Shown: piece by piece, positions 20,361 to 41,731 of the stretch
Layout: the number at the start of each line of letters is the position of its first letter
Numbering within the stretch: the stretch's first letter is position 1
NCBI GenBank assembly: GCA_014382665.1
Contig: JACNJH010000126.1
Location: forward strand, 1-52,903
Length of the DNA: 52,903 nucleotides
Direction: 5' to 3'
Source of the DNA: Candidatus Desulfatibia profunda
Lineage (GTDB): Bacteria; Desulfobacterota; Desulfobacteria; Desulfobacterales; UBA11574
The notes under the pieces: model-generated
Databases searched by the model: none
Told to the model about the DNA's origin: nothing
What the model saw: the letters and a program-made list of their open reading frames with translations, nothing else
Position numbers and translations under genes: made by a program

Positions 20361-20377
20361 TGCTGAAATATTCGGCA
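20361..20377. promoter_or_regulatory. Candidate upstream activator site 1
   Basis: TGCTGAAATATTCGGCA, an inverted repeat with 7-bp arms and one mismatch, ~105 bp upstream of the sigma-54 promoter. It matches the site at 20460-20476 at 13 of 17 positions. Confidence 0.55.
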
Positions 20378-20459
20378 GTGCGCATTTAGATAAAAACCAA
20401 AACGCCGACAACCTATTGTTTATTCATAGATTTTTTATTTGTCGAAAAATAAGACAGGG

Positions 20460-20476
20460 TGCCGAAAATTTAGGCA
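20460..20476. promoter_or_regulatory. Candidate upstream activator site 2
   Basis: TGCCGAAAATTTAGGCA, related to 20361-20377, ~200 bp upstream of the sigma-54 promoter. Two similar palindromes at these distances are typical of NtrC-family enhancers; the sigma-54 regulator gene next door (21045-22397) is the likely binder. Confidence 0.5.
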
Positions 20477-20492
20477 TCCGCAGCAGAACCTA

Positions 20493-21038: not shown

Positions 21039-21044
21039 TGTAAT

Positions 21045-22397
21045 TTATGATTCCTTTTCAATCTTGTATTTTTCGATCTTATTGTAGAGCGTCTGCCGGT
21101 CAATTTCCAATAAACGCGCTGTTTCGCTGATGTTCCAACCCGTTTCTTCCAGAATTTTTTTGATATGCACTTTCTCCATCAACTTTAATGATTTCGGTAA
21201 TGCGGCCGTTCCCGTTTCTTCGCGTGAAAAGGGAAGATCGTCCGGCACAATTTCCCGGCCGCGTCCGATTACCAACGCCCTTTCGATGACATTCTCCAAT
21301 TCCCGCACATTTCCGGGCCAGTTGTAATCGGTTAACAATTTCAAGGCAGAAGGCGAAATTCTCACCAGCTCTTTATTCATTTCCATACAGTACCTGCGGA
21401 TGAATGCCTTTACCAGCAGCGGGATATCCTCTTTTCGTTCCCTCAACGGTGGAACATGGATAGAGATGACGTTCAAACGATAGAAAAGATCTTCACGAAA
21501 TTTATTTTCGGAAATCGTCTCTTTCAGATTTCGATTGGTGGCCGCCAGGATACGTACGTCCACGCTTATCTCTTCCTGGCCCCCGAGGCGTCTGAACTCT
21601 TGTCGCTGCAAAACCCTTAAAAGATCCACTTGAGTCTTTAAACTGATATCACCGATTTCATCTAAAAATAGTGTTCCTTGATCGGCCAACTCAAAGCGCC
21701 CCTTTTTGGTATTCTCCGCACCGGTAAATGCACCCTTTTCATATCCGAACAGTTCACTTTCCAACAGAGAATCGGGCAATGCCCCGCAACTTACCGCAAT
21801 AAAAGGCTTGTAACAGCGCTGACTGTTTCCGTGAATCGCCCGGGCGATCAGTTCTTTACCGGTACCGCTTTCACCCGTGATGAGTACGGTGGAATCGGTT
21901 GGCGCCACCCGGGAAATCATATCGTAAATCTTTTGCATGGGATCGCTTTTGCCAATGATCTCATCATATTCTGATCTTTCTTCCAGTTTTTGGCGCAGTA
22001 AAATGTTTTCCAGGACCAGTTCTCGATGCGTAACGATTTTTCTGATCTGCATTTCAATTTCTTCCGGATCAAAAGGCTTGACCAGATAATCGAACGCACC
22101 TTCCTTCATGGCCTGAACCGCCGTATCTACCGAGGCATAAGCGGTCATCATGAGTATCTCAGCATCTGTATCCACTTCTTTTCCTTTCAGCCGCCTCAGG
22201 GTCTCAACTCCGTCCATACCCGGCATTTTCAGATCCAGCAAAATCACATCCCAGCTTTTTTCCACGGCCATCGCAATGGCATCTTTGCCGCTTTCTGCCA
22301 GACCGACCTCATAACCATCCTCCATTAGCCAGTCTTTAAGCGCTTCTCGCATCGCAGCTTCATCGTCAACGACAAGAATACGGGCCCTTTTGGTCAT
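21045..22397 (-). CDS. NtrC-family sigma-54 response regulator
   Basis: 450 aa. Receiver domain (~1-120): ILVVDDEAAMRE with acidic pocket, VILLDLKMPGMDG (phosphorylated Asp ~55), and K in YLVKPFDPEE. AAA+ domain (~140-375): Walker A GESGTGKELIARAIH, sigma-54 contact loop ELFGYEKGAFTGAE, Walker B GTLFLDEIGDIS, and sensor/arginine finger region. Fis-type HTH at the end (WNISETARLLEIDRQTLYNKIEKY). It lies downstream of its probable kinase (22659-24731, 261 bp gap) and upstream of amzA. The sigma-54 promoters at 20244 and possibly 26031 are candidate targets. Confidence 0.95.
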   Translation of the reverse strand: MTKRARILVVDDEAAMREALKDWLMEDGYEVGLAESGKDAIAMAVEKSWDVILLDLKMPGMDGVETLRRLKGKEVDTDAEILMMTAYASVDTAVQAMKEGAFDYLVKPFDPEEIEMQIRKIVTHRELVLENILLRQKLEERSEYDEIIGKSDPMQKIYDMISRVAPTDSTVLITGESGTGKELIARAIHGNSQRCYKPFIAVSCGALPDSLLESELFGYEKGAFTGAENTKKGRFELADQGTLFLDEIGDISLKTQVDLLRVLQRQEFRRLGGQEEISVDVRILAATNRNLKETISENKFREDLFYRLNVISIHVPPLRERKEDIPLLVKAFIRRYCMEMNKELVRISPSALKLLTDYNWPGNVRELENVIERALVIGRGREIVPDDLPFSREETGTAALPKSLKLMEKVHIKKILEETGWNISETARLLEIDRQTLYNKIEKYKIEKES

Positions 22398-22658
22398 TGT
22401 CCGTTCCTTCCATGTATTTTGATCTTAAAGTATGACTTGATTATCCTTTTCGCTCATATGGCCACTCGTTTTAGGTGGTCGGGTGTCGGACCGCTTGCCG
22501 GGCAACTGTCTGAGACCCTTGGCCCGGAAATTTCAAGGATACAAATTGTAATATGGCAATTGCACACTAAATTAGTAACTTCTCTATAACCTCTGGGAAA
22601 AATTAACTCTGCTGATAAATTTTCATAGAAATATTCGGGATAGCGCTTCGATTGCGCA
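22398..22658. other. Kinase-regulator intergenic gap
   Basis: 261 bp without a gene. A hairpin GGCCAC/GTGGTC lies at about 22459-22480. I see no clear promoter, so read-through from the kinase gene or an internal promoter are both possible. Confidence 0.3.
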
Positions 22659-24731
22659 TTACAATACGGCGAACGGCAGACTAACCTTGAAAGTGCTCCC
22701 CTTTCCGGGCTCGCTTTTCACTTCTATGATACCTTTGTGCCGGGTGACGATGCCGTAAACTACGGATAGGCCGAGGCCGACCCCTTTTCCCTCTTCTTTG
22801 GTGGTAAAAAAAGGATCAAAAATTTTTTCCTTATCTTTTTCCGTAATGCCGCAGCCCGTATCGGAAATCATGACATCTAAAAACCTCTCAGTCCCGGCTC
22901 TCCGACGAACGATCACCTTCAGAGTGCCGCCGCCTTGCATGGCGTCTGAGGCATTGTTTATAAGGTTCAAAAGGGCCTGCTGGATCTGTTTAAAATCGCA
23001 TTGAACGTGGGGCAGATTCGGCTCAATGATTTTTTCAAGTTGAATTCCTTTGATTTCAAGATCATGGGCAATCAGAAGCAGGGTCCTGTCAATAATACCC
23101 GTAATGCTGTGGCTCGCAATGCTGATTTTAGATTGACGGGAAAATGCCAGAAGATTTTTTACGATTTCCCCGCACTTGGATGTCTCGGAGTCCATAGTGG
23201 CCAAATATCGGGAAATATCCTCAAGTCTTTCCGAGGAAAAGCTATTTCGCTCGATAAGTTTTATCATCAGACGGATATAGGTCAGAACCGCGGCAAGGGG
23301 ATTGTTGATCTCATGGGCGATAGTCGCAGCTAATTTGCCCAGAGAGGCCAGTTTTTCTGTCTGAACGATCTGTTCCTGAGCCTCCTTGAGTTCCTGATAG
23401 GCCCTTTTGATATTTTCATACAGATTTGCATTATCGACCGCAACACCGATCTGGTTTCCAATGGCACTCAAGAATTCAATATGTTCGGATGAAAACGTAA
23501 TCGGGGTATGTCTGGACACACACATGACCCCGATCGGTTTCCCCTTGGTAACCAGCGGTACATAGGTGGTTGAATGCAGGCCTTCTGCGATAATCGAATC
23601 GACATAGGGGTCTTTGACTCGCTGAAGGTTGTCCAAAATCCGTGTTTTACCGTCCAGTATGGTCTGACCTAAAAACCCTTCTCCCGGTTTACGATATTTC
23701 ATAAAGGGTTTGGTCGTTACTTTATTTGAAAGCCCTCTGTGCGCCACCAGTTTGAGAATATTTTGTTTGTCGTCCAATAGATACATCCTGACACTGTTAT
23801 TGCCAAGAACCTCGAGGATTTTATCGATCGTGCCGCTTAATACCTCGTCGAGATTCAGACTGCTGCTGACGGTTTTGGAGATGGCATTTAAGGCGTCCAG
23901 CCGGATATTGTGACGATTGATCGCCTCTTGCGAGAGCTTCCTCCTGGTAATGTCCCTTATGATCAACACATAACCGACAATCTGTCCGGTTACATCGAGC
24001 GTCACGTTTGATGTGATCAACGCATAAAACCGCCGGTCATTCTTTCCCATAAGGCGGGTTTCAAATTCTACGACAAAGCCCTCCCGGGAAATCTTTTTAT
24101 GAAATTCAAAATATTCTTTGTTTTCAAAGATCTCGGCAACGGATCCACGTGCCAAAACCTCTTCCTGTGTTTTATACTCCAGGATATCAACCCCGGCCTG
24201 GTTGATCTCCGTAATCCTTCCGTCGACGTCGGTTAGAATGATGGCATCACGAGACCGCTCAAATATGGTTCGATATTTTTCTTCGGATTTTTGCAGATCT
24301 TCCAGGCGATAGGCCAACATCTTTTCCAGATTGCCTTCCACTTTTTCGAGATCAGCCTGAAGATGCAGCCTTCCCGTGATGTCGGTGGCGGTTTCCAGAA
24401 CATAAACGATCTCGCCCTGTTCGTCCTTGACCGGCATCGATTTAACAAGCATTTGCGCAACTCTGCCGTCCTTCATGATAACATTTTCTATATTCCAGTG
24501 TCCCCAGCCGTCCTTAAAGGTTTGTTCCACCAGACACTTTTCACATTTTTCATTTCTGTTTTTCCATAACTTGTAACAAAAATTATTCGGTTGCATGCCG
24601 AATTCTTTTTTGAAAAGTTCGTTGGCCATAATGACATGATAGTTCCGGTTGATAGCGATTACATAATCGGTTAAGCTTCTAAGAAGCACTTGATAAAATT
24701 TATGTTCCTGAAAATAGTCTTCGGTTTTCAT
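22659..24731 (-). CDS. PAS-PAS-GAF sensor histidine kinase
   Basis: 690 aa, no membrane segment seen, so a soluble sensor. Residues ~10-125: PAS-like domain with a CEKC pair (63-66). ~150-265: second PAS domain (FERSRDAIILTDVDGRITEIN). ~285-440: GAF domain. ~455-530: HisKA with LGKLAATIAHEINNPLAAV, phospho-His at ~473. ~575-688: HATPase with NLINNASDAM (N box), DTGCGITEKDKEKIFDPFFTTKEEGKGVGLGLSVVYG spread over G1/F/G2 boxes. The CxxC in the first PAS could hold a redox or metal sensor; the kinase at 26483 has a similar SSPCENC. It likely phosphorylates the regulator at 21045-22397. Confidence 0.95.
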   Translation of the reverse strand: MKTEDYFQEHKFYQVLLRSLTDYVIAINRNYHVIMANELFKKEFGMQPNNFCYKLWKNRNEKCEKCLVEQTFKDGWGHWNIENVIMKDGRVAQMLVKSMPVKDEQGEIVYVLETATDITGRLHLQADLEKVEGNLEKMLAYRLEDLQKSEEKYRTIFERSRDAIILTDVDGRITEINQAGVDILEYKTQEEVLARGSVAEIFENKEYFEFHKKISREGFVVEFETRLMGKNDRRFYALITSNVTLDVTGQIVGYVLIIRDITRRKLSQEAINRHNIRLDALNAISKTVSSSLNLDEVLSGTIDKILEVLGNNSVRMYLLDDKQNILKLVAHRGLSNKVTTKPFMKYRKPGEGFLGQTILDGKTRILDNLQRVKDPYVDSIIAEGLHSTTYVPLVTKGKPIGVMCVSRHTPITFSSEHIEFLSAIGNQIGVAVDNANLYENIKRAYQELKEAQEQIVQTEKLASLGKLAATIAHEINNPLAAVLTYIRLMIKLIERNSFSSERLEDISRYLATMDSETSKCGEIVKNLLAFSRQSKISIASHSITGIIDRTLLLIAHDLEIKGIQLEKIIEPNLPHVQCDFKQIQQALLNLINNASDAMQGGGTLKVIVRRRAGTERFLDVMISDTGCGITEKDKEKIFDPFFTTKEEGKGVGLGLSVVYGIVTRHKGIIEVKSEPGKGSTFKVSLPFAVL

Positions 24732-26482: not shown

Positions 26483-27970
26483 ATGCGCACGGTCAAAGAA
26501 AAAGAATTGTTGATCAAAGCGGTGGATTCGTTCATCCGGAAGTTTATTGTTGTATCTCCTGAATTCAAGATCCTGGCCGCCAGCTGTCAGCAAAATGAAA
26601 TACCACCGTCTGAAATCGTAGGAAAATACTGTTACGAAGTCCTGGCTAACCGATCCTCTCCGTGTGAAAATTGTGCCGTAATAGAGACGTTAGAGAACGG
26701 CAAGCACTCCTTAAAGCTGAAGATCGTTGATGATTTAGACCTGAACGTGATGCCGTGCTACTATTCATATCCCATCTATTCCGGGAAAGATGTCGAAGCC
26801 TATGTCAGTATGGATTTTGATATCCCCACCAGAGGAGGTCTCGAACAAAAGCTGGAGCGGTCCAAAGCCTTTTTGCATAATCTGATTCTCAGTACGGTAG
26901 ACGGGGTTATTGCGGCGGATAAAAGCGGTAAAATCCTTCTTTACAATGCAGCCGCAGCCGATATTTTCGGCTACACCCGGGATGAAGCGCTGACCCGTCT
27001 GAACGTTCGTGATATTTATCCTGACAATAATGCCTATGAAGTTATGCGAATGCTGCGCAGCGAGGAACACGGCGGTAAGGAAAAGCTCAAATCCTACCAG
27101 GTAGATGTCATCAGCAAACACGGTGAAATCATTCCCATCAACCTGAATGCAACCATCATTTATGAGCACGAACGAGAGTTGGCCACCATCGGTTTTTTTC
27201 ATGATCTGCGCGAGGAGCTTCGCATAAAAGAGGAACTGAGTAAGACCCAGATCCAGCTTTTGCAAGCAGAAAAGATGTCTTCCCTCGGCAAACTGGCTGC
27301 CGGCGTGGCGCATCAATTAAATAATCCGCTGGGAGGAATTATCCTGTTTACCAAGCTTATCCTCGAAGAATACGATCTGCCGGACGGCGCCAGACAAGAC
27401 TTAAACAGAGTTGTAAAAGACGCGGAAAGATGCCGGGATACTGTAAAAGAACTGCTTGAATTTACTCGTCAAACTCGCCATTTATTGCAACCTCACGATA
27501 TTAATCAAGCGATTTCCCGGACCCTGTTTCTGCTTAAAAACCAGGCCCTGTTCCAGAATATAAAAATAGAAAATGATCTGGATGCTACGCTCCCATTGGT
27601 TCCATCTGATATCCAGCAACTGAATCATTTGTTTATGAACATCATTCTTAATGCGGCCCAGGCCATGGAAGGCCATGGAAAACTGACGATTAAGAACTAC
27701 CTGTTACCGGAAGGCAATAAGATCGGCATCGAAATCGCAGACACCGGTCCGGGAATACCCGAAGATATCCTGCCCCATATCTTCGAGCCCTTCTACACCA
27801 CCAAGAATGAAGGGGAAGGAACCGGGTTGGGCCTCAGTCTGGTATACAGTATCGTCGAAAATCATGGTGGTCATATCAAGGTCACAAGTAAGCCCGGAGA
27901 GGGAACCACTTTCATCATTGAGATGCCCCTTGAACACAAGAGAAATGGAGGAGATAACATTGAAAAATAG
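26483..27970 (+). CDS. PAS sensor histidine kinase
   Basis: 495 aa; start after GGGGAGCGGC. N-terminal ~115 residues form a PAS-like domain with SSPCENC (58-64). A canonical PAS domain is at ~128-245 (LSTVDGVIAADKSGKILLYN). HisKA: LGKLAAGVAHQLNNPLGG, phospho-His at 277. HATPase: NIILNAAQAM, DTGPGIPEDILPHIFEPFYTT, GTGLGLSLVY. No transmembrane helix. It overlaps the next gene by 11 bp, so it is translationally coupled to a receiver-containing kinase. The CxxC-type PAS is shared with the kinase at 22659. Confidence 0.94.
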   Translation: MRTVKEKELLIKAVDSFIRKFIVVSPEFKILAASCQQNEIPPSEIVGKYCYEVLANRSSPCENCAVIETLENGKHSLKLKIVDDLDLNVMPCYYSYPIYSGKDVEAYVSMDFDIPTRGGLEQKLERSKAFLHNLILSTVDGVIAADKSGKILLYNAAAADIFGYTRDEALTRLNVRDIYPDNNAYEVMRMLRSEEHGGKEKLKSYQVDVISKHGEIIPINLNATIIYEHERELATIGFFHDLREELRIKEELSKTQIQLLQAEKMSSLGKLAAGVAHQLNNPLGGIILFTKLILEEYDLPDGARQDLNRVVKDAERCRDTVKELLEFTRQTRHLLQPHDINQAISRTLFLLKNQALFQNIKIENDLDATLPLVPSDIQQLNHLFMNIILNAAQAMEGHGKLTIKNYLLPEGNKIGIEIADTGPGIPEDILPHIFEPFYTTKNEGEGTGLGLSLVYSIVENHGGHIKVTSKPGEGTTFIIEMPLEHKRNGGDNIEK

Positions 27971-29450
27971 GCCCGACAACATTCGCGTATTGGTTGTGGA
28001 TGATGAACAGGATGTCCGGGATGGATCCGAACGGATTCTGACTCGAATCGGTTTTGAGGTCCTGAAAGCTTCTCGGGGCGATAAAGCCCTGGAAGTGTTT
28101 GCAGAGACCGAGGTCTCCATTGTGCTGCTCGACCTGAAGATGCCGGGGATGGATGGGATGGAGGTCCTCAAACGCATCAGAAATCTGGATGAATCGATTC
28201 TGGTGATCGTGATCACTGGATATGCCACCGTAGAAACGGCCATTGAAGCCATGAAGCAGGGCGCCTACGATTTTATCCCCAAACCCTTTGACCCGGATCA
28301 ATTGCGCATCGTGGTGAATCGTGCCGCCGAAAGAATTCGCTTAACGCGCGAGGCCGAAAGACTGGAGCAGGAAAGAAAAAGGACCCTGTCTGATCTGGAT
28401 ACGGAAAAGAGCCGCATCCATACCATTATCGAGCATCTTCCCAACGGTGTGATGGTTACCAACTCCCGCGGCCAGGTGGTTTTGATGAACCCCGCCGCCA
28501 AACAGCTTTTAGATCTCGCTCCCGGTCTGACGGTTGGAAATCAGATAAGAGACTATCTGCCCAACGATGGACTTTGTGATCTTGTACTGGAGATTTCTCA
28601 GGGAAAATATGTGGATTTTGACGACCTTCCCGACTATGAATTTGCCATTGCCGGCAAAAAATATCTTCTGGCAAAGGGGCAGCCGGTTCTTGGCGAAAAA
28701 AAAGAGTGCCTGGGAGCGGTTGTGAATATTGTGGATATTACAGCCATGAAAGTTATGGATCAGCTTAAATCCGAATTTGTGGCCAAGGTATCTCATGAAC
28801 TGCGATCACCGCTTTCAACTATCCATGAGCAGCTTGCTTTGGTAATCAGAGATATGTTGGGGAATGCATCCGAGTATGACCAGCATATACTTACCCGTGC
28901 CAGGGAAAAGACTCGGGGTCTGATTTCCCTTATCGGCGACCTGCTGGACCTCTCTCGTATCGAGGAAGGGCTTATCGGTCAGGAGCCGAAACCGGTCCGC
29001 TTGGAAGAACTTTTGGAAAATATTTTAGATTTTCTCAAGACCCGGGCAGAGGGCAAAGGACTGTCCCTTACCCTGCAACTTCCCGATGATCCGCTTCCTG
29101 AACTCACTGCCGATCCCCTTGCTTTGGAAAGCATTTTCGGAAACCTGATCACCAATGCCATCAACTACACCCAGGACGGCGGAAAAATCAAAGTAGAAGT
29201 CGACATGGCCGGAATCAATGTGCGCGTAAAAGTTATTGATAACGGATTCGGGATAGCAGATAAATATCTGGAGAAGATTTTTGAGAGATTCTATAGGGTT
29301 AAGGACGAAAAGACAAGATATATCACCGGTACGGGGCTGGGGTTGCCCATCGTAAAAGGGTTGGTGGATTCTATGAACGGTTTCATAAATGTAGAGAGCA
29401 CGCCCGGCAAGGGCTCAACCTTTACGGTTCTTTTGCCGGTTAAACCCTAA
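27960..29450 (+). CDS. Hybrid receiver-PAS-histidine kinase
   Basis: 496 aa from TTG 27960, chosen because GGAGGAG lies 6 nt before it; the in-frame ATG at 27945 has no good site. Receiver domain first (~5-125): VLVVDDEQDV, phospho-Asp in VLLDLKMPGMDG (~55), FIPKPFDPDQ. PAS (~155-255), then HisKA with FVAKVSHELRSPLSTI (His ~275) and HATPase (NLITNAINYTQDG, DNGFGIADKYLEKIFERFYRV, GTGLGLPIVKG). A receiver at the N-terminus of a kinase suggests a phosphorelay step after the upstream kinase. No DNA-binding domain. Confidence 0.93.
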   Translation: MKNRPDNIRVLVVDDEQDVRDGSERILTRIGFEVLKASRGDKALEVFAETEVSIVLLDLKMPGMDGMEVLKRIRNLDESILVIVITGYATVETAIEAMKQGAYDFIPKPFDPDQLRIVVNRAAERIRLTREAERLEQERKRTLSDLDTEKSRIHTIIEHLPNGVMVTNSRGQVVLMNPAAKQLLDLAPGLTVGNQIRDYLPNDGLCDLVLEISQGKYVDFDDLPDYEFAIAGKKYLLAKGQPVLGEKKECLGAVVNIVDITAMKVMDQLKSEFVAKVSHELRSPLSTIHEQLALVIRDMLGNASEYDQHILTRAREKTRGLISLIGDLLDLSRIEEGLIGQEPKPVRLEELLENILDFLKTRAEGKGLSLTLQLPDDPLPELTADPLALESIFGNLITNAINYTQDGGKIKVEVDMAGINVRVKVIDNGFGIADKYLEKIFERFYRVKDEKTRYITGTGLGLPIVKGLVDSMNGFINVESTPGKGSTFTVLLPVKP

Positions 29451-30430: not shown

Positions 30431-31750
30431 TTACATCGCCGACTCAGGGTGAAAAACCAGAACCTTCTTGAGATCATCACCCAGATATTCACGCTCGTTG
30501 GGACCCAAAATCCCCAGTGCCAGGCAGATGAGGGTCCACAAATGCACCGTATGGTACTTTCCTTGGTAGTGTTCGCCGATATCATGTACCTGGGCATGAC
30601 AGTTGTGGCACGGCGTGATACAATAGTCCGCGCCGGTCTTGGCAATCTGATCAAACTTGAATTTGCCGTAACCCCGGCGTGCTTCCGGCAGTCCCGACTG
30701 CAGGAAACCGCCGCCGCCGCCGCAACAGTAGTTGTTGGACTTGTTGGGATGCATCTCAACAAAATTTTCCTCGCCCACGACGGTCTTGGTCACAAAGCGA
30801 AGATCTTCGGCCACCGGATCGCCGAAACTTTTGCGCACCAACTGGCACGGATCCTGAACAGTAAACTTGACCTTCAGATCCTTGTTCCAGTCGGAATTGA
30901 CTTTCAGCTTGCCGTCACGGAGCCATTCGGCATAACACTGAATGATGCTCTTGATCTCAAACTTGTGCTCGATGTTGAACTTCGTCAGTCCGACCCGGAC
31001 TGCAAACAGTTCGTGCCCTCACTCGGTATTGAGCCAGTACTTGCATCCTAAATCATCTACGGCTTTGGCCTTGACTCTAATGATGTGCTCCCAGTTCTCC
31101 AGGTCGGCGCAGAACATACAGTAGTTTTCGGCCGCCCAGCCTTTGGTGCCGTATGTCCAGTCGGCGCCTGCCAAATGCATGATCTTCCACAGTGGCACCA
31201 TTTCGTCCGGCTCGGTGACCGGCTCGCGCGAATTCTGGTTCAAAAAATACATGGCACCTTCTTTGTTGATGGGTGCCTGCATATCCTTGAACTCCGGCTG
31301 GGATTCCCGGTACTCCTCCAGCACGTCTTCTACAACGAATTTAAAGTCTTCTTCGGAGGTCCCCATGGCGCTGCAGGTGTCATGCATCAAGGCCGCATCA
31401 CACGAACCCCGGATGCCCTTGGGCTGTTTTTCCTTGGGCCATCTGTTGCGAACATTGAAGACCAGTTGGGGAATATCGATCTTCATGGGACACAAATAAA
31501 TACAGCGCTGGCACATGGTGCACATCCAGGCCCATTCGGAGTTCAGGATCTCTTCGTCCATCCCCAGCGAAGCCATTCGTAAAAACTTCCGCGGATCCAT
31601 ATCCTCCAGACCGGTCGCCGGACAACCCGAAGAACACGCTCCGCACGTCAGGCAAAGGTTTAGATTCCCTCCATCCGGGAGAATCTCCATCACACTGTCT
31701 TTAAAGGTGCTGGGTTTGTCCCCTTTAAACTTAATAATTTCGGATGACAT
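30431..31750 (-). CDS. HdrBC/HdrD-like iron-sulfur selenoprotein (cluster B)
   Basis: 439 aa with TGA 31021-31019 read as Sec244, exactly the length and Sec position of the paralog at 8794-10113. CLTCGACSSGCP and CTMCQRCIYLCP (two 4Fe-4S); NTEUGHELF (Sec in place of the Cys of ECGH); QDPCQLV, NYCCGGGGGF and TPCHNCHAQ (CCG domain). Start after AAAGGAG. It is separated from metF by a single-domain receiver gene, whereas in cluster A it lies directly before metV. One of the terminal electron-transfer modules of the MetFV-Hdr complex. Confidence 0.9.
30986..31021 (-). promoter_or_regulatory. SECIS element of hdrBC (cluster B)
   Basis: UGA, 16 nt, then CAGUCC-GGGUC-GGACUG: 6-bp perfect stem, GGG-bearing loop 22 nt after the UGA. 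Compared with cluster A the loop changes C to U while the stem is kept. Confidence 0.8.
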
Positions 31751-31857: not shown

Positions 31858-32247
31858 TTACTCGCCGAGAAGTCTTTTGATACTTTCAGTAATCTCCTCG
31901 GCCGAGGCCGGTTTGGGGATATAGTCGTCCGCCTCGGTGCTCATCCCATCGCGGTGGGAATAGCGCGTAGACGTCACATGCGAAGCAACGGCCGTCAGCA
32001 GAATAACCGGAATGTCAGCATATTTCTCATCGGCTTTCAACTTCTTGCATACCTGGTATCCGTCCATTTCAGGCATCATGATATCCAGTACAATCGCGTC
32101 CGGCGGGTTTGCATGGACCTTTTCCAGACCTTCAGCGCCACTGTAGGCAAGCTCAACCTCGAAGCCTTCCTTCTCCAGATTTACCTGAACAATGGAGCAG
32201 AAATCAGGTTCGTCATCGATAACTAGAATCCTCTTTTTTGAGTTCAT
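31858..32247 (-). CDS. Single-domain response regulator
   Basis: 129 aa, receiver domain only: ILVIDDEPDFC, phospho-Asp in IVLDIMMPEMDG (~55), T/S in ILLTAVASH, K in YIPKPASAEE. The loop between beta4 and beta5 (SHVTSTRYSHRDG) is a few residues longer than usual. No output domain. Start follows AAGGAGGATC. It sits inside the cluster B operon between metF and hdrBC, so it may deliver a phosphorylation signal to the complex or to a kinase encoded elsewhere. No equivalent exists in cluster A. Confidence 0.92.
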   Translation of the reverse strand: MNSKKRILVIDDEPDFCSIVQVNLEKEGFEVELAYSGAEGLEKVHANPPDAIVLDIMMPEMDGYQVCKKLKADEKYADIPVILLTAVASHVTSTRYSHRDGMSTEADDYIPKPASAEEITESIKRLLGE

Positions 32248-32348: not shown

Positions 32349-33281
32349 TCAATCCACACTCGGCCGGGGATACAGACCCGATTTTTCCACAATCTCCGGC
32401 ACCATTTCCTCCCATTCAATGGCCATGACGTGAAAGCCATGAACCCCTTCCACTTCTTTGAGGTGCTGAATCTGCTCAATGCAGATTTTGATCCCTTCCT
32501 CCGGCTGTTTTTCTTTGGGCGTACCTGCCATTCTTTTCACCAACTCATCCGGCACTTCTATCCCGGGAACCCGGTTCTTCATGTATTTGGCCATGCCGGC
32601 TGATTTAAACGGCGTCACGCCTGCCAGAATATAGACTTTTTCAAGTAATCCACGGTCACCGGCCATCTTCAACCAGAGCTCGAATTTTTCCATGTTGTAT
32701 ATACACTGGGTCTGGATAAACTCGACCCCGGCGGCAATTTTTTTAGCCAGACGGGGAACACGAATTTCAAACGGGTCGGCAAAGGGATTGGCCGCGGCCC
32801 CCACAAACATCTTCGGGGGACGACCAATATCCCCGCCACCCAGAAACTTGCCTTCATCGCGCATAAGCCTGACGGTTTGAGCCAATTGCATTGAGTCAAT
32901 ATCATGAACATTTTGACCCTGGGCGCAGTCTCCAAAGCTCTGGTGGTCTCCGGAAAGACAGAGAATATTATGGATGTCAAACGCAGCCGCCCCTAAAATA
33001 TCACTCTGCAAGGCAATGCGGTTGCGATCACGGGTCACCATCTGAAGTACCGGCTCAAGCCCCATGAGTTTCAGACGGATACAGGCAGCCAGGCTGCACA
33101 TCCGGGTAACCGATGTCTGGTTGTCGGTAATATTGATGGCATCCACATGATTTTTGATCATTTCGGCTTTTTCGGTAATGACCTGCATATCGCTGCCGCG
33201 CGGAGGGCCGCACTCGGACGTAACGGCATGATGACCGGCGGCAAGTATCTTTTCCAGTTTGCTTGGTGTCTTTACTTTCAT
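32349..33281 (-). CDS. metF: Methylene-tetrahydrofolate reductase catalytic subunit (cluster B)
   Basis: 310 aa from ATG 33281, which overlaps the metV stop (ATGA); the frame continues upstream but only into metV. Motifs: SECGPPRGSDM, NITDNQTSVTRM, QMVTRDRNR, LCLSGDHQSFGD, FVGAAANPFADP, FIQTQCIYNMEKF. A close paralog of 6819-7763. MetF and MetV are translationally coupled here, which supports a fixed MetFV complex. Confidence 0.9.
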   Translation of the reverse strand: MKVKTPSKLEKILAAGHHAVTSECGPPRGSDMQVITEKAEMIKNHVDAINITDNQTSVTRMCSLAACIRLKLMGLEPVLQMVTRDRNRIALQSDILGAAAFDIHNILCLSGDHQSFGDCAQGQNVHDIDSMQLAQTVRLMRDEGKFLGGGDIGRPPKMFVGAAANPFADPFEIRVPRLAKKIAAGVEFIQTQCIYNMEKFELWLKMAGDRGLLEKVYILAGVTPFKSAGMAKYMKNRVPGIEVPDELVKRMAGTPKEKQPEEGIKICIEQIQHLKEVEGVHGFHVMAIEWEEMVPEIVEKSGLYPRPSVD

Positions 33282-33946
33282 TCCTTCAAATCCTCCCTGA
33301 CAACTTTTCGGGGTCCCCCGGCCCTGTCTCTGGACCAATCTTTCAAGGAACTCAGTTTTTCATAGTCATCGAGTCTGTCCAGTGCCTTGAGGCGCTCGAT
33401 GATCAATTGCCAGGCACAGACGATATCCTTGTGAATCTCACAGCTGCCTTTGGTCGAGCCACCGCACGGACCGTTCAGGACTCGCTTTGCACACCTGGAG
33501 ATCGGGCAGATCCCACCGGTACGAGCCAGAATACACTCCCCACAACCCTGGCACCTTTCCGTCCAGAGCCCCCGTTCTTCGGTAACCCCCATAAAAGAGG
33601 TGTTCACTCCGGGATAGACAGGGGTGGCGTGGTATTTTTCGGCCGTGAACTGAACGCCGACGCCACAGGCAAGGGACACGACAGCGTCATACTGATCGAT
33701 GATGTCCCGAATCTCTTCAAGGTATTCATGATCACATTGCCGCTGCAACGTATGCTCATCGATCTGAACCGTTTGTCCCTGATTGAGAAAATGCATTCTT
33801 AAGGTCGAAGCCAGAACCGCGACTTCCTTCCTTCCGCCGGCCTCGCAAACCGTAACGCATTCGTTGCAACCTAGAATGAGGATCTTTTTATGATCTTTGA
33901 CTTCCCGGATAATTTCCTCAACCGGTTTTCTGTCTACAACAATCAT
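33278..33946 (-). CDS. metV: MetV, iron-sulfur partner of MetF (cluster B)
   Basis: 222 aa. MIVVDRKPVEEI matches the start of the cluster A MetV and confirms that gene's start at 8560. ILILGCNECVTVCEAGGRKEV, LACGVGVQFTAEKY, then CQGCGECILARTGGICPISRCAKRV and NGPCGG. ATG follows AGAGAGGTC. Overlaps metF by 4 bp. Confidence 0.88.
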   Translation of the reverse strand: MIVVDRKPVEEIIREVKDHKKILILGCNECVTVCEAGGRKEVAVLASTLRMHFLNQGQTVQIDEHTLQRQCDHEYLEEIRDIIDQYDAVVSLACGVGVQFTAEKYHATPVYPGVNTSFMGVTEERGLWTERCQGCGECILARTGGICPISRCAKRVLNGPCGGSTKGSCEIHKDIVCAWQLIIERLKALDRLDDYEKLSSLKDWSRDRAGGPRKVVREDLKE

Positions 33947-34697: not shown

Positions 34698-37600
34698 CTA
34701 ATTAAATAAAGCGTCAATTTTACACATTATCTGATCGTCCTCATACCAACTCAGCTCGATTGCCTTGGCCGGACATTCGGCCGCACAGATGCCGCAACCA
34801 TGACACAAGGCCTCATCGATCTGGCTCACACCGTCTGCATTAATCCTCGGCACCCCGTACGGACACGCGCGGACACAGATAAGGCAGGCGGCACAGATCT
34901 CCGTTTCAACCTTGGCGGTCACAGCAGATAACGTCAGCTGGGGCCGGGACAATAACGTGCTGGCTCTTGAGGCCGCGGCCAACGCCTGTGAGATCGACTC
35001 GGACAGAAGTTTGGGACTGTGGGCTGTTCCACAAACAAAGATACCTTCCGTTGCCATATCGACCGGCCTTAATTTAACGTGGGCCTCCATAAAATGGCCC
35101 TCCGCTGTCCGGGCCAGTTTGACAATAGAGGCGAGTTCTTCCGTGTCTTCGGCCACCATTCCGGCACTCAGCGCCAAGATGTCTGCATGGACCTGGATGC
35201 GACGGCCCAGAACATGGTCTTTAAATGTTACCACGACACCGTCTTCGGTCGCTTCGGCCACAGGAGGATCATCCTGTTCGAACCTTGAGAAGATAACCCC
35301 CATTTTTCTGGCCTCGGTATAGTACTCTTCCAGAAATCCGTAAGTCCGGATATCCCGGTAAAGGATGAAGACCTGGGCATGCGGATTAAGCTTTTTAATG
35401 TGAATGGCATTTTTAATGGCGGCCTGACAGCAAATCCTGGAGCAATTGGGATTTTCCTCGTTTCGCGATCCCACACACTGTATCATGACTACCTGTTTCA
35501 GATCGTCGGCACCCTGTTTTTTTAGATGATCCGCAAACTCGACCTGGGTCATTACCCTTTGGTCCCGGCCGTAGAGAAATTCTTTGGGACGATATTCAAC
35601 GGCCCCGGTTGCCAGAATGACAACACCGTGGTCGATCTTTCTTTCGTACATACCCGGCCCGACAAGGACCTCGGTGGTGAAGTTCCCCTTGAAGCCGGTA
35701 AATCCAACGATAAGCGATCGGGTTAGAATCTGGATTTTGGGGTGCGAATTCACCTTTGCAATCAGCTCTTTCAGATACCTGCCCACATCCAACCCATCGA
35801 TGGTAGCGGTCAGACGATTGGCCATTCCTCCCAATTTTTCCTCTTTTTCGACCAGAACCACCTCGAAATCCTGATTTGCAAGCCCCAAGGCTGCGTTCAT
35901 GCCGGCCACTCCTCCGCCGACAATCAACGCCCGTTGAATGACCGGAATCGTCTTTTCATGCAGCGGATGGAGTGTCGCAGCACGCGCTACGGCCATTTGA
36001 ATCAGCGTTTTGGCTTTTTCCAAAGCTTTTTCGGGGTTGTCCGAATGGACCCAGGAGTCCTGATTGCGGATGTTGGCCATTTCGATTAAGTACTTGTTCA
36101 GGCCACAGCCCACAAGGGTATCCATAAAGATCCCCTCGTGCGTCTTCGGAGTGCAGGCAGCAACAACAATTCTGTTGAGGTTGTTTTCCTCAAGGGTCTT
36201 TTTCATCTGTTCCAGAGAGTCCTGACTGCACGTAAACAGATTCTGACCGGTATAGGCGACATAGGGAAGCGTCTTGGCATACTCCTCGAGAACATTGACG
36301 TCCACAATACCCGCAATGTTGACGCCGCAGTGGCAGACAAAAACACCGATCCGCGGTTCCTGATCGGTCACATCGATTTCAGCGGGAATTTGAACGCTTT
36401 TGGTCCGGGTGTTTCTGACCGCGTTCAGAAGTCCACCGGCCAGGCATGCCGCCGCACTCGCCTCGGTAACGGAACTCGGAATATCTTTGGGTTCCTGAAG
36501 CACCCCGGACACGTATATACCGGGGCGAGAGGTTTCCACCGGCGCATGGGGCCGGGTAACTGCAAAATTGTATTTATCCAGTTCGATCCCCAAACGCTCC
36601 GCCAGTTTTTTGGTTGTGCCCGGCACCTGAAGCCCTACCGACAGCACCACCATGTTAAAGGTCTCTTCCTGACGTCTGCCAGCCTCATCCACATACTGTA
36701 ACTGCAAATCGCCGGTCTCGGGAATCTCTTTGATCGTGTGAATTCTCGACTTAACAAAACGAACCCCGGCTTTTTCTTTGGCCCGCAGATAATACTTTTC
36801 GTATTCTTTGCCAAAGGTTCGAATATCCATGTTGAAAATGACGCAATCCAGTTCTTCGTGGGCGTGTTCCTTGGCAATCATGGCGTCCTTTATGGCGTAC
36901 ATGCAGCACACCGACGAACAATACCCATTGCCGCAGCGGTTGGTATCCCGCGAACCCACACACTGCAGCCACGCAACCTTCTTCGGCTCGGTTTCATCCG
37001 ACGGCCGCACCAGGTGACCCATGGTCGGTCCCGAGGCGCTTAATATCCGCTCGAATTCCAGACTCGTTACGACATTTGGATTCTTTTTATAATGATAAAA
37101 CTCCTCAAACACGGTCGGATCATACGGCTCGGATCCCGTGCTTATGATAACCGAACCGACGGCGAGTTCCCGGTCTTCGGGCCGCTGGTCGTGAATGACC
37201 GCCTCGGCCAGACAGGCCGATACGCACTGCATGCACTCCGAACAATACCCGCAGTTCAGACAACGCGCTGCCTCGGCTTGACCTGCGGCCTCATCGTAGC
37301 CCAGTTCCACCTCCTCAAAGTTGCCGTGGCGCCTTTCAACCGGCAGCTCCGGCATTTTTGCCCTGGCAATTTTAGGTTCATTATCGGCAATCGGTCGATA
37401 CACCGGGTTTTCATTGGTTTCAGACTTCCGTCCTTTGGTCATATCCTGTCCGTCAAGATACCTGACTATGGACTCGGCTGCTGCACGACCAGCAGCAATG
37501 GCCTCAATCGCTGTTGCAGGACCGGTCTGCAAATCACCACCCGCAAAAACACCTTCGTGATCCGTGGCATAGGTAACGGAATCGACTTCGGTTGTCCCCC

Positions 37601-39167
37601 ACCTAGAGAATTTCAGGCCAGCCACATTCTCGATCGACGAAAGATCCGGTCGCTGGCCAATGGCCGGAATAAGCTGATCGATTTCTATGTCATAATCGCT
37701 GTCCGGTATACTCACCGGCCGTCTTCGGCCTGATGCGTCCGGCTCGCCCAATTCCATCCGCATACACCGTAGCCCGACAACGCTGCCGTTACGGGTCAGC
37801 ACCTCCTTGGGTGCCGCAAGATATGTGATCTTAACGCCCTCCGACTCTGCGGCTTGAATTTCTTCCTCCCAGGCAGGCATTTCGGCACGCGTGCGCCGGT
37901 AAATGATACGGACCTCTTTTGCACCCAGCCGAACCGCAGATCTGGACACGTCAATGGCCACATTTCCGCCGCCGATAATGGCCACTTTTTCGCCGACATG
38001 GGCCTTTCCCGTTAGATTTACTTCTCTTAGAAAATCGACACCCTGACGAACCGCGTCAGCCTTTTCGCCGCTGATCCCGAGTTCGATTCCCTTGTGAGCG
38101 CCAAGGGCAAGATACACCGCTTTATATCCGTTGTTTAAAAGATCATCGACACTCAAGTCCGGCCCTAAGGGGGTGTTGGTTTTAATTTCCACACCCAGAT
38201 TAGTAATTAACTCGATTTCCCGATCCAAAATATCTCTGGGAAGACGATGGGCGGGAATACCGACGCGCAGCATCCCGCCGGCTGCGGGCAGGGCTTCAAA
38301 AATGCTGGATAACACGCCGTTGCGGGCCAGATGATAGGCAGCGGAAAGACCCGCAGGACCCGATCCGATGATGGCCACCTTCTCTTTTTTCGGAGGCGGA
38401 CACTCGATTTCAATTTCCCGCGGATCAAATCGATCTGCGGCCAATCGCTTAAGATCCCGGATGGCTACCGCTTCGTCGACTTCACGCCGGCGGCAGACAT
38501 CTTCACACTCGTGGGGGCAAATCCGTCCCAGCACGCCGGGAAGCGGAAGATCCTCCATAATAATTTCCAGGGCCTCTTTGTACTTGCCGGCCTTAACCAT
38601 CTGAACGTATCCTTGTACGTTTAAACCGGCCGGACACGTCAGTCGACACGGCGCTGTATCGGTTTTCTCAATCGCAAAAGCCCCTGGAATCGCCTGAGCG
38701 TATTTCTTATAGGCGGCTTTTCTTTTGGAAAGGCCTTCGTCGTACTCGTTGGGAAGCTCAACGGGGCAAACCTTGACACATTCACCGCAGCTGGTGCACT
38801 TGGAAAGATCTATAAAGCGGGGGGTCTGGCGCACCCTTGCGGTAAAGCGTCCGGGATCACCCTCAAGGCTTAAGAGTTCGGTGTTTGTTAAAAGCTCTAT
38901 GTTTAAATGCCGGCCGACCTCGACCAGTTTGGGCGAGATAATTCACATGGAACAGTCATTGGTGGGAAAGGTCTTGTCCAGCTGCGCCATCATACCACCA
39001 ATGGCCGAAGATTTCTCAACGAGGTATACATAATATCCTGAGTTGGCAAGATCCAGGGCGGACTGCATTCCTGCGATTCCGCCCCCGAGCACCATGACCG
39101 AACCGACACTGTCTTTTCCAGGCTTTGCAGGGGGCATTTCTTTTATTTGGCTGTTCTTTTTTTCCAT
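34698..39167 (-). CDS. hdrA: HdrA-GltD-HdrA fusion selenoprotein (cluster B)
   Basis: 1489 aa with TGA 38945-38943 read as Sec75 (NDCSMU). Start ATG 39167, AAGGA before it; the N-terminus has a ~20-residue basic/proline tail before GGGIAGMQ. Order: [12 protein letters not shown]; GltD-like insertion with [31 protein letters not shown] (FAD) and [21 protein letters not shown] (NAD(P)); [27 protein letters not shown]; second module [30 protein letters not shown]-terminal [12 protein letters not shown] and [12 protein letters not shown]. Same plan as 14517-18947. It follows metF3 by 10 bp in a sigma-54 operon. Predicted bifurcating core that links NAD(P)H, ferredoxin and MetFV. Confidence 0.92.
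38910..38945 (-). promoter_or_regulatory. SECIS element of hdrA (cluster B)
   Basis: UGA, 15 nt, then CUGGUC-GAGGUC-GGCCGG, identical to the hairpins at 13363 and 18735. Confidence 0.7.
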
Positions 39168-39177
39168 TTTTTTGTCC

Positions 39178-40047
39178 TTACATTCTATCTATGATCTCAG
39201 GAAGTTTGTGTTCCCATCCGATGGTTGCAAGTAAGACACCGCCGAAGCCTTCCTGCTGTAATGTTTTGGCTATTTCAGATGCGATTCGGATACACTCGCG
39301 CACCTTTTCAGGCGATTTCTGAATCCTTGCAATCAAAGCATCGGGAATATATACATGATCAACATTACGCTGTATGTACCGGGCCATACCTAGTGATTTG
39401 AGCAACAAAACCGTTGGAATTATTTTTATCTTCTGAAGATCCACCCGTTTGACAAAAGGCTCGATGGCAGAAAGATCGAACAAAGGAGGGGTAATGAAAA
39501 ATTCAGCGCCGGCGTCAACCTTCTGGTTCATCTCTTCGAGTACCAATTCAGGAGATTTACCCTTGGCACCGGCATCGACTGTCGAGCCGACAAGGAAACG
39601 GGGAGATCCTTCAAGTTCAATGCCGGCCATGTCCCTTCCTTCCTGAAGCGACTTTACAGCCCTCAATAGTTCTAGCAGGTCGATGTCATAAACCGACCTT
39701 GCCTGATGGTGGTCTCCATAGCTGGGATCTTCTCCGGTGACCGCCATAACACTGGTAATGCCGCAGCCGTAAGCTGCAAGGAGATCTGCCTGGAGCGCAA
39801 TTCGGTTCCTGTCTCTGCAATTAAGCTGCATCACCGTCTCCATCCCCTCTTTCTGCAGAATCATGGCGCCGCCGAGAGAACTCATCCGCATGACGGCGTT
39901 GCTCATTTCCGGCACAACAAAGGCATCCACATTGCCTTTAACCCGTCTGGCATTCGTCACCATCGTGGAGACATCGACGCCCTTGGGCGGATCCAGTTCC
40001 GCAAGTATAGCAAATTCCCCTGTGTCGAATTTGCGCTTCAAATGCAT
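39178..40047 (-). CDS. Divergent MetF-family protein at the head of cluster B
   Basis: 289 aa; start after GGAGGT. MetF-like motifs are weaker than in the other two copies: [58 protein letters not shown] (where others have FIQTQCIYN). The NITDNQ block is replaced by [12 protein letters not shown], so it may use another folate step or be a non-catalytic homolog. First gene of the sigma-54-dependent operon, 10 bp before hdrA. No counterpart in cluster A. Confidence 0.78.
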
Positions 40048-40130
40048 GTGTTACCTCCAGGTTTTCAGAAAAAGTTCTTATTTAAGAATTGGAATTAACT
40101 TATCGACTCAATCGGGTCTAATTGTGCTAA

Positions 40131-40147
40131 AGCAATAATTGTGCCGG
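40131..40147 (-). promoter_or_regulatory. Sigma-54 promoter of the cluster B operon
   Basis: Minus strand CGGCACAATTATTGCT (40146-40131): -24 GG and -12 GC at exact spacing and all core bases GGCAC..TTGC present. Start near 40120, about 73 nt before metF3. Confidence 0.82.
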
Positions 40148-40254
40148 AAGAAAATAATAAAAAAGAATGTTGATAAGGTGCATAATATCAAATAGTTGGG
40201 ATGGAGATGTTCTGATGGAAAAATATTTTAAGGTTTGAATGCAACTGGCTATTG

Positions 40255-40267
40255 TGCCAATTTGGCA
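40255..40267. promoter_or_regulatory. Candidate activator site (perfect palindrome)
   Basis: TGCCAATTTGGCA, perfect palindrome ~110 bp upstream of the sigma-54 promoter. The repeated words TTGTGCC and TGTGCTAAA lie around it. Confidence 0.55.
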
Positions 40268-40315
40268 TATGTGCTAAAATAAATAATATTAAATCCATGA
40301 GGTTATCATAAGTTG

Positions 40316-40328
40316 TGCCATTTTGGGA
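40316..40328. promoter_or_regulatory. Candidate activator site 2
   Basis: TGCCATTTTGGGA, near-palindrome preceded by the same TTGTGCCA word as the site at 40255. ~170 bp upstream of the sigma-54 promoter and just before the activator gene, which may also autoregulate. Confidence 0.45.
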
Positions 40329-40360
40329 TGGTCCTTTTTGGAACATCAGGAGAGATATCA

Positions 40361-41731
40361 ATGAATAACAGCATAATCCTGGTTGATGATGACCTTGATT
40401 TTCTTGAAACTCTAAAAAAGCGGCTGATAAACTCGGGTTTTAAGAAAATTCACGGCGAAGATGATTCGCTAAAAGCAGCATCTCTTTTTGAAAAAGGAGA
40501 GGTATTTGATATCGCCTTGATTGATATGACAATGCCGGGCCTGGACGGAATCGAACTGCTTGAAATAATTAAGACAATAAGTCCGAGAACTGAATGCATT
40601 ATGCTGACGGCTGTGAATGACGCCCGAAATGCGGTGGAATGCCTTAAAAAGGGGGCTTATGACTATCTTTTAAAACCGGTCACCCAGGAGGATCTTGTTT
40701 TTTCAATGAAAAGGACCCTGGAAAAAAAGCGGCTGCTCGATATTCTGGACATTGAAAAAAGCAAAACCCTGCCGCGGTTGAAAAACTCAGCGCCATTTAA
40801 ACCGATCATTACACAGTCTCATAAAGTTTTAAGGATTTTAAAGGAAGCGGAGTTGCATGCCGGCAGTGATGTGCCGGTTTTGATTACAGGAGAAAGCGGG
40901 ACCGGAAAGGAACTTGTTGCAAAGGCGATCCATGCGGCCAGCCCCAGGTCGAACTTTCCGTTTACGCCGGTAAACATGGCCTCTCTTAGCGGCAGCCTAT
41001 TTGAAGCGGAATTTTTCGGCCACACCAAAGGCGCTTTTACCGGCGCGGAAAACAGCCGTGCCGGCTACCTCGAACACACGAATCAGGGAACCATGTTTTT
41101 GGATGAAATCGGGAACCTGACATATGAGCTTCAGGGCAAACTGTTGAGAGTTTTACAGGATGGAGAATATCTCAAGCTGGGAACCAGCAGCCGTCAGAAG
41201 GTTGATGTGCGCTTTATTGCCGCCACCAACGAAGACATGGACAAACTGATTGCAAAGAAGATGTTTCGCAAAGATTTGTTTTACCGAATCAGGGGCGGAT
41301 GGCTCCACCTTCCCCCCTTAAGGGACAGACAGGCTGATATTCCCCTGCTGGCAAACAGATTTCTAAAGGATTTTTGCGGTCGTTTAAATCATTGCTTCAT
41401 CGAAGAAGAAACCATGTGCTTGCTGATGGAATATAACTATCCCGGCAATATTCGAGAACTCAGATCAATCATACAGTCAGCCGTTAACCTGGCCCAGGGA
41501 AGGTCGATTTCCCCAAATTTTCTTCCTAAACATTTACGCAAAGGAAAATCAATATTAACATGTAAGGATGCTTCCGGATCCGAATCCATCCTCTCCATGG
41601 AGCAGGTTGAAAAGACCCATATTCTCAGGGCTTATAACCATACGGGCCAAAACAAGTCCCAGACCGCGAAGCTTTTGGGTATCAGCCTCAACACCCTCAG
41701 AAGAAAGCTCAACGCATACGGGGTAACATAA
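40361..41731 (+). CDS. NtrC-family sigma-54 response regulator, probable activator of cluster B
   Basis: 456 aa from ATG 40361 (AGGAGA upstream); the longer frame to 40313 lacks a site. Receiver (~1-120): IILVDDDLDFL, phospho-Asp in IALIDMTMPGLDG (~55), YLLKPVTQED. AAA+ (~150-385): GESGTGKELVAKAIH, EFFGHTKGAFTGAEN, GTMFLDEIGNLT. HTH at the end: GQNKSQTAKLLGISLNTLRRKLNAYG. Divergent from cluster B with a sigma-54 promoter and two palindromes between them, so the target is very likely cluster B. No paired kinase is adjacent. Confidence 0.95.
   Translation: MNNSIILVDDDLDFLETLKKRLINSGFKKIHGEDDSLKAASLFEKGEVFDIALIDMTMPGLDGIELLEIIKTISPRTECIMLTAVNDARNAVECLKKGAYDYLLKPVTQEDLVFSMKRTLEKKRLLDILDIEKSKTLPRLKNSAPFKPIITQSHKVLRILKEAELHAGSDVPVLITGESGTGKELVAKAIHAASPRSNFPFTPVNMASLSGSLFEAEFFGHTKGAFTGAENSRAGYLEHTNQGTMFLDEIGNLTYELQGKLLRVLQDGEYLKLGTSSRQKVDVRFIAATNEDMDKLIAKKMFRKDLFYRIRGGWLHLPPLRDRQADIPLLANRFLKDFCGRLNHCFIEEETMCLLMEYNYPGNIRELRSIIQSAVNLAQGRSISPNFLPKHLRKGKSILTCKDASGSESILSMEQVEKTHILRAYNHTGQNKSQTAKLLGISLNTLRRKLNAYGVT

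What the first reader, a model, noticed from the sequence alone, without database searches (positions are those of the whole stretch)
39178..40360. Sigma-54 promoter, two palindromes and a divergent activator control cluster B
GGCAC-N5-TTGC with perfect spacing at 40131-40146, palindromes at 40255 and 40316, and an NtrC-type gene at 40361 make a complete enhancer-dependent switch for a central carbon module. Sigma-54 control of a MetFV-Hdr operon is not something I know to be described.
Basis: partly seen in the sequence, partly recalled or inferred. Interest (0 to 1): 0.55.

Follow-up and report, generated by a model that had tools for sequence, protein, structure and literature searches.

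The report
Enhancer-driven switch for methyl-branch electron-bifurcating operon
In a bacterium related to known sulfate reducers, a gene switch of the sigma-54 type, with its own activator gene beside it, very probably turns on a set of enzymes that handle one-carbon units and electrons; the type of switch is known, but its use on these enzymes was not found described.

Summary
A sigma-54 site (GGCAC-N5-TTGC) lies on the minus strand at 40132-40145, 84 bp before metF3, facing a divergent NtrC-type response regulator (40361-41731). The two palindromes are copies of one operator; a third copy (40331-40343) and an IHF-like site (40186-40198) had been missed. One such site could be chance, but comparison removes that doubt. 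A sigma-54 site is kept in 33 of 33 non-redundant regulator-linked regions (0.93 expected from shuffles; 3 of the 33 were added after their site had been seen). Operators number 83 against 9.8 expected, with rigid spacing (15 bp in 17 of 33, 59-61 bp in 24 of 33). IHF-like sites sit at one place (16 hits in 5 positions, 3 in 90 others). In 7 genomes that have metF3 but no regulator, 0 of 7 have a sigma-54 site within 300 bp, and none has a spaced operator pair. Best reading: a local enhancer-dependent switch of PspF/pspA type driving metF3-hdrL-mvhD-metV-metF-receiver-hdrC-hdrB. No second conserved target was found. Signal and kinase are unknown. The parts are of a known kind; the target was not found in the papers searched. 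Nearest precedent: DVU2394 on an adh-hdr operon in Desulfovibrio.

The parts
40132..40145 (-). sigma-54 promoter core, GGCAC-N5-TTGC (-24/-12); expected transcription start about 12 bp further, near 40120 (inference)
   Evidence: 8 or 9 of 9 core letters in 33 of 33 regulator-linked regions
40255..40267 (.). operator UAS2, TGCCAATTTGGCA
   Evidence: its core starts 120 bp before the -24 GG here, and 119-126 bp in 26 of 33 loci (which looked only at 112-134 bp)
40316..40328 (.). operator UAS1b, TGCCATTTTGGGA, 61 bp from UAS2
   Evidence: a 59-61 bp spacing in 24 of 33 loci
   Evidence: a 15-bp pair in 17 of 33 loci
40186..40198 (+). IHF-like site TATCAAATAGTTG (consensus recalled)
   Evidence: exact match, starting 53 bp before the -24 GG; 16 hits at distances 52-56 against 3 at the 90 other positions over 33 loci
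40361..41731 (+). divergent NtrC-type response regulator: receiver, sigma-54 AAA+ domain with GAFTGA, Fis-type HTH
   Evidence: in 14 aligned orthologues D10, D11, D55, K105 and GAFTGA are invariant
39178..40047 (-). metF3, methylenetetrahydrofolate reductase family, first gene behind the promoter; Shine-Dalgarno-like GGAGG at 40054-40058
34698..39167 (-). hdrA of the HdrL type (HdrA fused to a glutamate-synthase-like NAD(P) domain), with in-frame TGA (presumed selenocysteine) at 38943-38945
   Evidence: HdrL naming from passages of PMC2702500
34162..34512 (-). mvhD
   Evidence: FlpD
33278..33946 (-). metV (DUF5981)
32349..33338 (-). second metF of the operon
31858..32247 (-). stand-alone receiver (CheY-like) inside the operon; in G033 the gene directly behind the promoter
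31019..31750 (-). hdrC-like
30431..31018 (-). hdrB-like, short form; start codon not settled
26483..27970 (+). PAS histidine kinase (HK1), convergent with the end of the operon
27807..29450 (+). receiver-PAS-histidine kinase (HK2); candidate partner of the operon's receiver, also present without the regulator

Best explanation
This is a local sigma-54 (RpoN) switch. The phosphorylated regulator at 40361 binds three CCAWWWTGG-like palindromes in the shared intergenic region. IHF bends the DNA between them and the promoter, and the regulator's AAA+ domain opens the RpoN polymerase at 40132-40145 to transcribe metF3-hdrL-mvhD-metV-metF-receiver-hdrC-hdrB. Shown by sequence: the DNA parts, the intact regulator, an RpoN gene, conservation and fixed spacing, and joint absence of regulator, operators and promoter. 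Inferred: binding, IHF use, phosphorylation, start site and co-transcription of the whole operon. Also inferred and weaker: the operators within 45 bp of the regulator's start codon repress its own transcription, as PspF does (recalled). The kinase and signal are unknown.
For: Sigma-54 site in 33 of 33 non-redundant regulator-linked regions, 24 of them 9 of 9, against 0.93 expected. Operators 83 against 9.8 expected, spaced 15 bp in 17 of 33 and 59-61 bp in 24 of 33, with UAS2 119-126 bp before the -24 in 26 of 33. IHF-like site at one position: 16 hits in 5 positions against 3 in 90. RpoN in the genome. Receiver, GAFTGA and HTH conserved. Controls: of the metF3 orthologues above 50% identity in the 60 genomes, 7 lie in genomes without a regulator match at E <= 1e-110; 0 of 7 have a sigma-54 site within 300 bp and none has a spaced operator pair (Fisher p 5e-8, related rows treated as independent). 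G008, where the regulator now lies about 7 kb away, keeps two operators and an exact promoter at metF3. In 14 paralogous regulator loci not linked to metF3 there is no 15-bp or 59-61-bp operator pair within 500 bp upstream, and a single loose match in 1 of 14.
Against: No expression or binding data. Exceptions: L010 keeps a weaker site (TGGTAC) 225 bp from its last operator; L012 and L027 lack a recognisable UAS2; in L121 the distance is 154 bp, in L031 and L044 113 bp; L128 has one operator; L018 is partly masked. No IHF-like site at the usual place in 17 of 33. Three of the 33 (L022, L037, L121) were added after their site had been seen; without them it is 30 of 30. Background is not nil: 7 of 27 methylmalonyl-CoA mutase upstream regions (up to 700 bp) hold a site of 8 or more of 9, 1 of 27 an exact one, and two of the seven controls have an exact site 451 or 593 bp upstream.
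Confidence: 0.9

Rival explanations
1. The sigma-54 promoter is real but works chiefly for a short transcript (metF3, or the embedded receiver in some genomes), while the rest of the operon has its own promoters.
For: In G033 the receiver gene lies directly behind the promoter without met or hdr genes detected there; in L049 metF3 is not followed by the hdr cluster; in L044 metF3 is missing and hdrA is first.
Against: Gene order metF3-hdrL-mvhD-metV-metF-receiver is kept in L038, L040, L045, L122, L124, L125, L128 and L129, and in the window only 10 bases separate the metF3 stop from the hdrL start.
Confidence: 0.15
2. The palindromes serve mainly to repress the regulator's own promoter; activation of metF3 is secondary or due to another activator.
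For: Two operators lie within 45 bp before the regulator's start codon; a weak sigma-70-like site at 40262-40289 overlaps UAS2; in G008 degenerate operator-like sequence remains beside the moved regulator (by eye).
Against: The sigma-70-like match is at chance level (2 overlapping matches found, 1.8 expected). UAS2 keeps a nearly fixed distance to the -24 element with an IHF-like site between in 16 of 33, which autorepression alone does not need. G008 keeps two operators at metF3 after the regulator moved.
Confidence: 0.05
3. The sigma-54 match is a chance hit in an AT-rich intergenic region and the operon is driven by sigma-70.
For: A 9-letter match alone is not rare (3 in the window).
Against: 33 of 33 against 0.93 expected, and 0 of 7 without the regulator. 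Sigma-70-like sites before metF3 do not exceed shuffles in the 29 regulated loci examined (p 0.16 to 1.0).
Confidence: 0.02

Closest known systems
PspF/pspA of E. coli (recalled, not tested)
   Same: Divergent sigma-54 activator, upstream operators in the shared region, IHF site between operators and promoter; autorepression, proposed here too.
   Different: PspF has no receiver domain and answers membrane stress; here the activator is a response regulator and the target is one-carbon and electron metabolism.
DVU2394 and the DVU2405-2397 adh-hdr operon of Desulfovibrio vulgaris (passages of PMC3333781; table passage of PMC4641369)
   Same: Response-regulator type sigma-54 activator of an operon with heterodisulfide reductase genes in a sulfate reducer.
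   Different: DVU2394 binds a direct repeat and its operon carries alcohol dehydrogenase; here the operators are palindromes and the operon is MetF/MetV-HdrL. Orthology was not tested.
DVU3142 and ohc operons of Desulfovibrio (passage of PMC4641369)
   Same: Divergent sigma-54 activator with promoter and operators found across several genomes.
   Different: One-component activator, different target.
MetFV-HdrABC-MvhD of Moorella and other acetogens (recalled; one search saw only a search listing)
   Same: metF, metV, mvhD and hdrABC together as one presumed complex.
   Different: Here an extra metF leads the operon, hdrA is the HdrL fusion with a TGA codon, a CheY-like receiver is embedded, and a sigma-54 promoter stands in front.
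hdr loci of Desulfobacterium autotrophicum HRM2 (passages of PMC2702500)
   Same: HdrL fusion, mvhD neighbour, selenocysteine, CheY-like regulator in an hdr locus.
   Different: sigma54 occurs 0 times in its main text; whether that locus is orthologous was not tested.

Membership tests
sigma-54-dependent promoter | -24 GG and -12 GC elements with fixed spacing | tested here: met
   GGCAC-N5-TTGC at 40132-40145 (-); such a site in 33 of 33 loci
sigma-54-dependent promoter | RpoN in the genome | tested here: met
   PF04552 hit of 208 bits in a 485-aa open frame, plus a second hit of 82 bits in a 206-aa frame
sigma-54-dependent promoter | transcription starts about 12 bp after the -12 element and needs RpoN | not testable with these tools
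   needs 5'-end mapping and an rpoN mutant
enhancer-dependent promoter with upstream operators and IHF | activator sites some 80-150 bp upstream at fixed spacing (range recalled) | tested here: met
   UAS2 119-126 bp before the -24 in 26 of 33; a 59-61 bp operator spacing in 24 of 33
enhancer-dependent promoter with upstream operators and IHF | IHF site between operators and promoter | tested here: inconclusive
   recalled consensus enriched at one position (16 hits against 3 elsewhere), absent there in 17 of 33 loci; binding untested
NtrC-type (response regulator) enhancer-binding protein | receiver, sigma-54 AAA+ domain, Fis-type HTH | tested here: met
   PF00072, PF00158, PF02954 above cut-off
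NtrC-type (response regulator) enhancer-binding protein | phosphoacceptor Asp and GAFTGA loop intact | tested here: met
   D55 and GAFTGA invariant in 14 of 14 aligned orthologues
NtrC or AtoC proper (equivalogs) | NCBIfam score above the curated cut-off | tested here: not met
   ntrC 333.5 against 558.6; AtoC 362.3 against 714
MetFV-HdrABC-MvhD type cluster | metF, metV, mvhD, hdrA, hdrB and hdrC genes adjacent | tested here: met
   hdrB is a short form
MetFV-HdrABC-MvhD type cluster | proteins form one complex with the MetF reaction | not testable with these tools
   biochemistry needed

The most novel reading that the evidence does not exclude
The methyl-branch MetFV-HdrL complex of these bacteria is run by a closed signalling loop: a kinase pair at one end, a receiver made from the operon itself and a divergent sigma-54 activator at the other end set the amount of the complex by redox or energy state. 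Lineages have gained or lost the activator together with operators and promoter as one cassette.
Probability: 0.2. Interest if true: 0.65.

Novelty: new member of a known kind. Interest (0 to 1): 0.42.

Why it matters
How bacteria that use the Wood-Ljungdahl methyl branch decide when to make this reductase complex was not found described in my searches. The locus gives a defined promoter, operators and regulator, seen in genomes of 12 families of one order, that can be tested in a culturable relative. The regulator-less versions of the same operon are a natural control for what sigma-54 control adds.

Tried and rejected
Wider regulon: the operator pattern in the own genome gave 19 sites against 11 for the reversed control; the 15-bp tandem pair gave this locus and one other, against 3 for the control; the pair with a 50-52-bp gap in 25 genomes recurred only at the metF3 locus, in 10 genomes, while 10 other places were scattered, against 25 control hits. 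One own-genome operator-like site with an exact sigma-54 match 174 bp away lies before methylmalonyl-CoA mutase. Of the other 26 upstream regions none has that arrangement; three (L237, L240, L241) have a loose operator match and an 8-of-9 site about 315 bp apart. Rejected as a second target.

Replacement sigma-70 promoters in regulator-less operons: best matches do not exceed shuffles (p 0.055 to 0.71, 7 loci); not claimed.

Cognate kinase: the kinase beside a paralogous regulator (L119) has as best-scoring hit in the own genome a 33% match over half its length. HK2 is present with the operon also where the regulator is absent, and in G004 it lies about 290 kb from the regulator, so it cannot be assigned to the regulator. 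metF3-linked regulators cluster in the tree but are not resolved as one clade (5 changes against 18.4 for shuffled labels; 0% of bootstrap trees with one). In that tree the group called B_HK held three rows (L046, L048, L127) for which no kinase directly upstream was seen.

Rows dropped, left out or added: L006 as near copy of L005. G008's regulator locus (L007/L116) is not among the 33 because a rearrangement removed metF3 from its side. Paralogues not linked to metF3 are not counted. L022 and L037 are counted although the contig ends before the divergent gene; L121 has the receiver and L044 hdrA as divergent gene. L022, L037 and L121 were added after their sites had been seen. MetF paralogues under 50% identity were not used as controls.

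Full report
What is in the sequence. metF3 (39178-40047, minus) and an NtrC-type response regulator (40361-41731, plus) diverge from a 313-bp region. On the minus strand 40132-40145 reads GGCAC-AATTA-TTGC, with 84 bp between it and the metF3 start codon. Exact matches to GGCAC-N5-TTGC number 3 in the window against 0.48 expected, so this one site alone would not be proof. TTGTGCCAATTTGGCAT at 40252-40268 and TTGTGCCATTTTGGGAT at 40313-40329 are two copies of one repeat, and a third core lies at 40333-40341.

Conservation. The regulator has matches at E <= 1e-110 in 31 of 60 genomes, own included. In 25 loci metF lies divergently beside it within the fetched flank, and all 25 hold a sigma-54-like site of 8 or 9 of 9 core letters on the metF strand. 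Nine loci were added from named genomes and other stretches, three of them (L022, L037, L121) after their site had been seen; one near copy was dropped, giving 33. 33 of 33 hold such a site, against 0.93 loci expected from dinucleotide shuffles; 24 are 9 of 9. The operator core CCNWWWNGG occurs 83 times against 9.8 expected. Spacing is rigid: a 15-bp pair in 17 of 33, a 59-61-bp pair in 24 of 33. The promoter-side operator lies 119-126 bp before the -24 GG in 26 of 33 and at 113 bp in two more (which searched 112-134 bp). Between them an IHF-like sequence (recalled consensus, one orientation, at most one mismatch) occurs 16 times at distances 52-56, in 16 loci, but only 3 times over the other 90 positions; in the window it is exact, at 40186-40198. 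The G-handle loci with the divergent gene in view come from 12 families: f1 and 11 others.

Controls. Seven genomes have a metF3 orthologue (51-70% identity) but no regulator match at E <= 1e-110: G009, G026, G028, G037, G049, G056, G057. None has a sigma-54 site of 8 or more within 300 bp of metF3; one (L203) has a single loose operator match there, and none a spaced pair. Two have 9-of-9 matches further away, 451 and 593 bp upstream. In two of the seven (L210, L211) the operon and both kinases are seen without the regulator, hdrC and hdrB being detected in L211 only. In G008 the regulator lies about 7 kb from metF3 after a rearrangement, and metF3 keeps two operators and an exact promoter. 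Of 14 paralogous regulator loci not linked to metF3, none has a 15-bp or 59-61-bp operator pair within 500 bp upstream; one has a single loose match, and one (L048) a loose 15-bp pair about 1.6 kb away. Several of these paralogues differ in the recognition helix, others do not. The tree clusters metF3-linked regulators but does not resolve them as one clade. Upstream regions of methylmalonyl-CoA mutase serve as background: 7 of 27 have a site of 8 or more of 9 in up to 700 bp, 1 of 27 an exact one.

Target operon. Behind the promoter lie metF3, an HdrA of the HdrL type (fused to a glutamate-synthase-like domain), mvhD, metV, metF, a stand-alone receiver, hdrC and a short hdrB, then aroE. The order is kept in L038, L040, L045, L122, L124, L125, L128 and L129, with hdrC or hdrB not detected in several. 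In L043 only metF3, receiver and aroE were detected, L044 lacks metF3, and in L121 only the receiver was detected behind the promoter. The receiver is thus kept in each of these variants; in L049 it was not detected. A PAS kinase and a receiver-PAS kinase converge on the end of the operon in L121, L124, L125 and L129 and, without the regulator, in L210 and L211; in L044, L045 and L128 the contig or stretch ends inside HK2; in G004 HK2 lies elsewhere.

Mechanism. Shown: DNA parts, their conservation, an intact regulator (D10, D11, D55, K105 and GAFTGA invariant in 14 of 14) and RpoN in the genome. Inferred: phosphorylation-dependent binding of the regulator to the palindromes, IHF bending, activation of RpoN polymerase at metF3, co-transcription through hdrB. 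Weaker: autorepression of the regulator; the sigma-70-like match there is at chance level. That the host is a sulfate reducer is inferred from the names of related records (Desulfobacteraceae, Desulfobacterales) and was not tested.

Literature. Searches of the open-access library and term look-ups in PMC4641369, PMC12316311, PMC6615313, PMC11887813, PMC3333781, PMC2702500, PMC4046663 and PMC12456013 showed no sigma-54 control of a MetFV-Hdr operon. I saw listings, passages or zero-hit counts, not whole texts; most subscription journals are not held. Nearest precedents: DVU2394 on an adh-hdr operon; a proposal that sigma-54 regulates autotrophic metabolism in acetogenic Clostridiales (passage of PMC6615313); and a general statement that regulators beside Desulfobacteraceae pathway genes are mostly single-component activators, for example sigma-54 dependent (passage of PMC11887813).

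Verdict. A real, conserved and probably local enhancer-dependent switch of known type on a target not found described.

Noticed in passing
window 19240-24731: A second exact sigma-54 site (TGGCACAGCCCTTGC, 20245-20259, minus) lies 75 bp before a GcvH-like gene (19240-20169), with an M54-peptidase-like gene, an NtrC-type regulator (21045-22397) and a PAS-GAF kinase (22659-24731) on the same strand: perhaps another sigma-54 unit.
   Followed up: partly
window 38943-38945: In-frame TGA at residue 75 of HdrL; most aligned relatives also have TGA there, some have Cys. Fits the selenocysteine-containing Hdr proteins in passages of PMC2702500.
   Followed up: partly
window 31858-32247 and L121:11837-12223: CheY-like receiver gene embedded in the met/hdr operon; in G033 it is the gene directly behind the sigma-54 promoter.
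   Followed up: partly
L011, L012, L014, L016, L017, L018, L023 intergenic regions: Seen by eye: a repeat-bounded insert (ends like CGCAGAGG and CTCTGCG) sits between the sigma-54 promoter and metF3, making leaders of several hundred bases.
   Followed up: no
G000:C76:32088-32120, 23342, 27009: Operator-like TTCCAAAATGGAA copies on the contig of another sigma-54 activator of the same genome.
   Followed up: no
L213 and L116 (G008:C169): Another kinase-regulator operon lies between the regulator and metF3, now about 7 kb apart; operator-like sequence remains on both sides, degenerate at the regulator.
   Followed up: partly
L059 (CP070739.1): A record titled Methanomassiliicoccales archaeon carries a 65% identical regulator with kinase-like genes upstream; perhaps a wrongly binned bacterial stretch.
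   Followed up: no
window 6819-7775 and 14517-18563: A further metF homologue and a second large HdrL-like gene lie in the same window, outside the operon studied.
   Followed up: no
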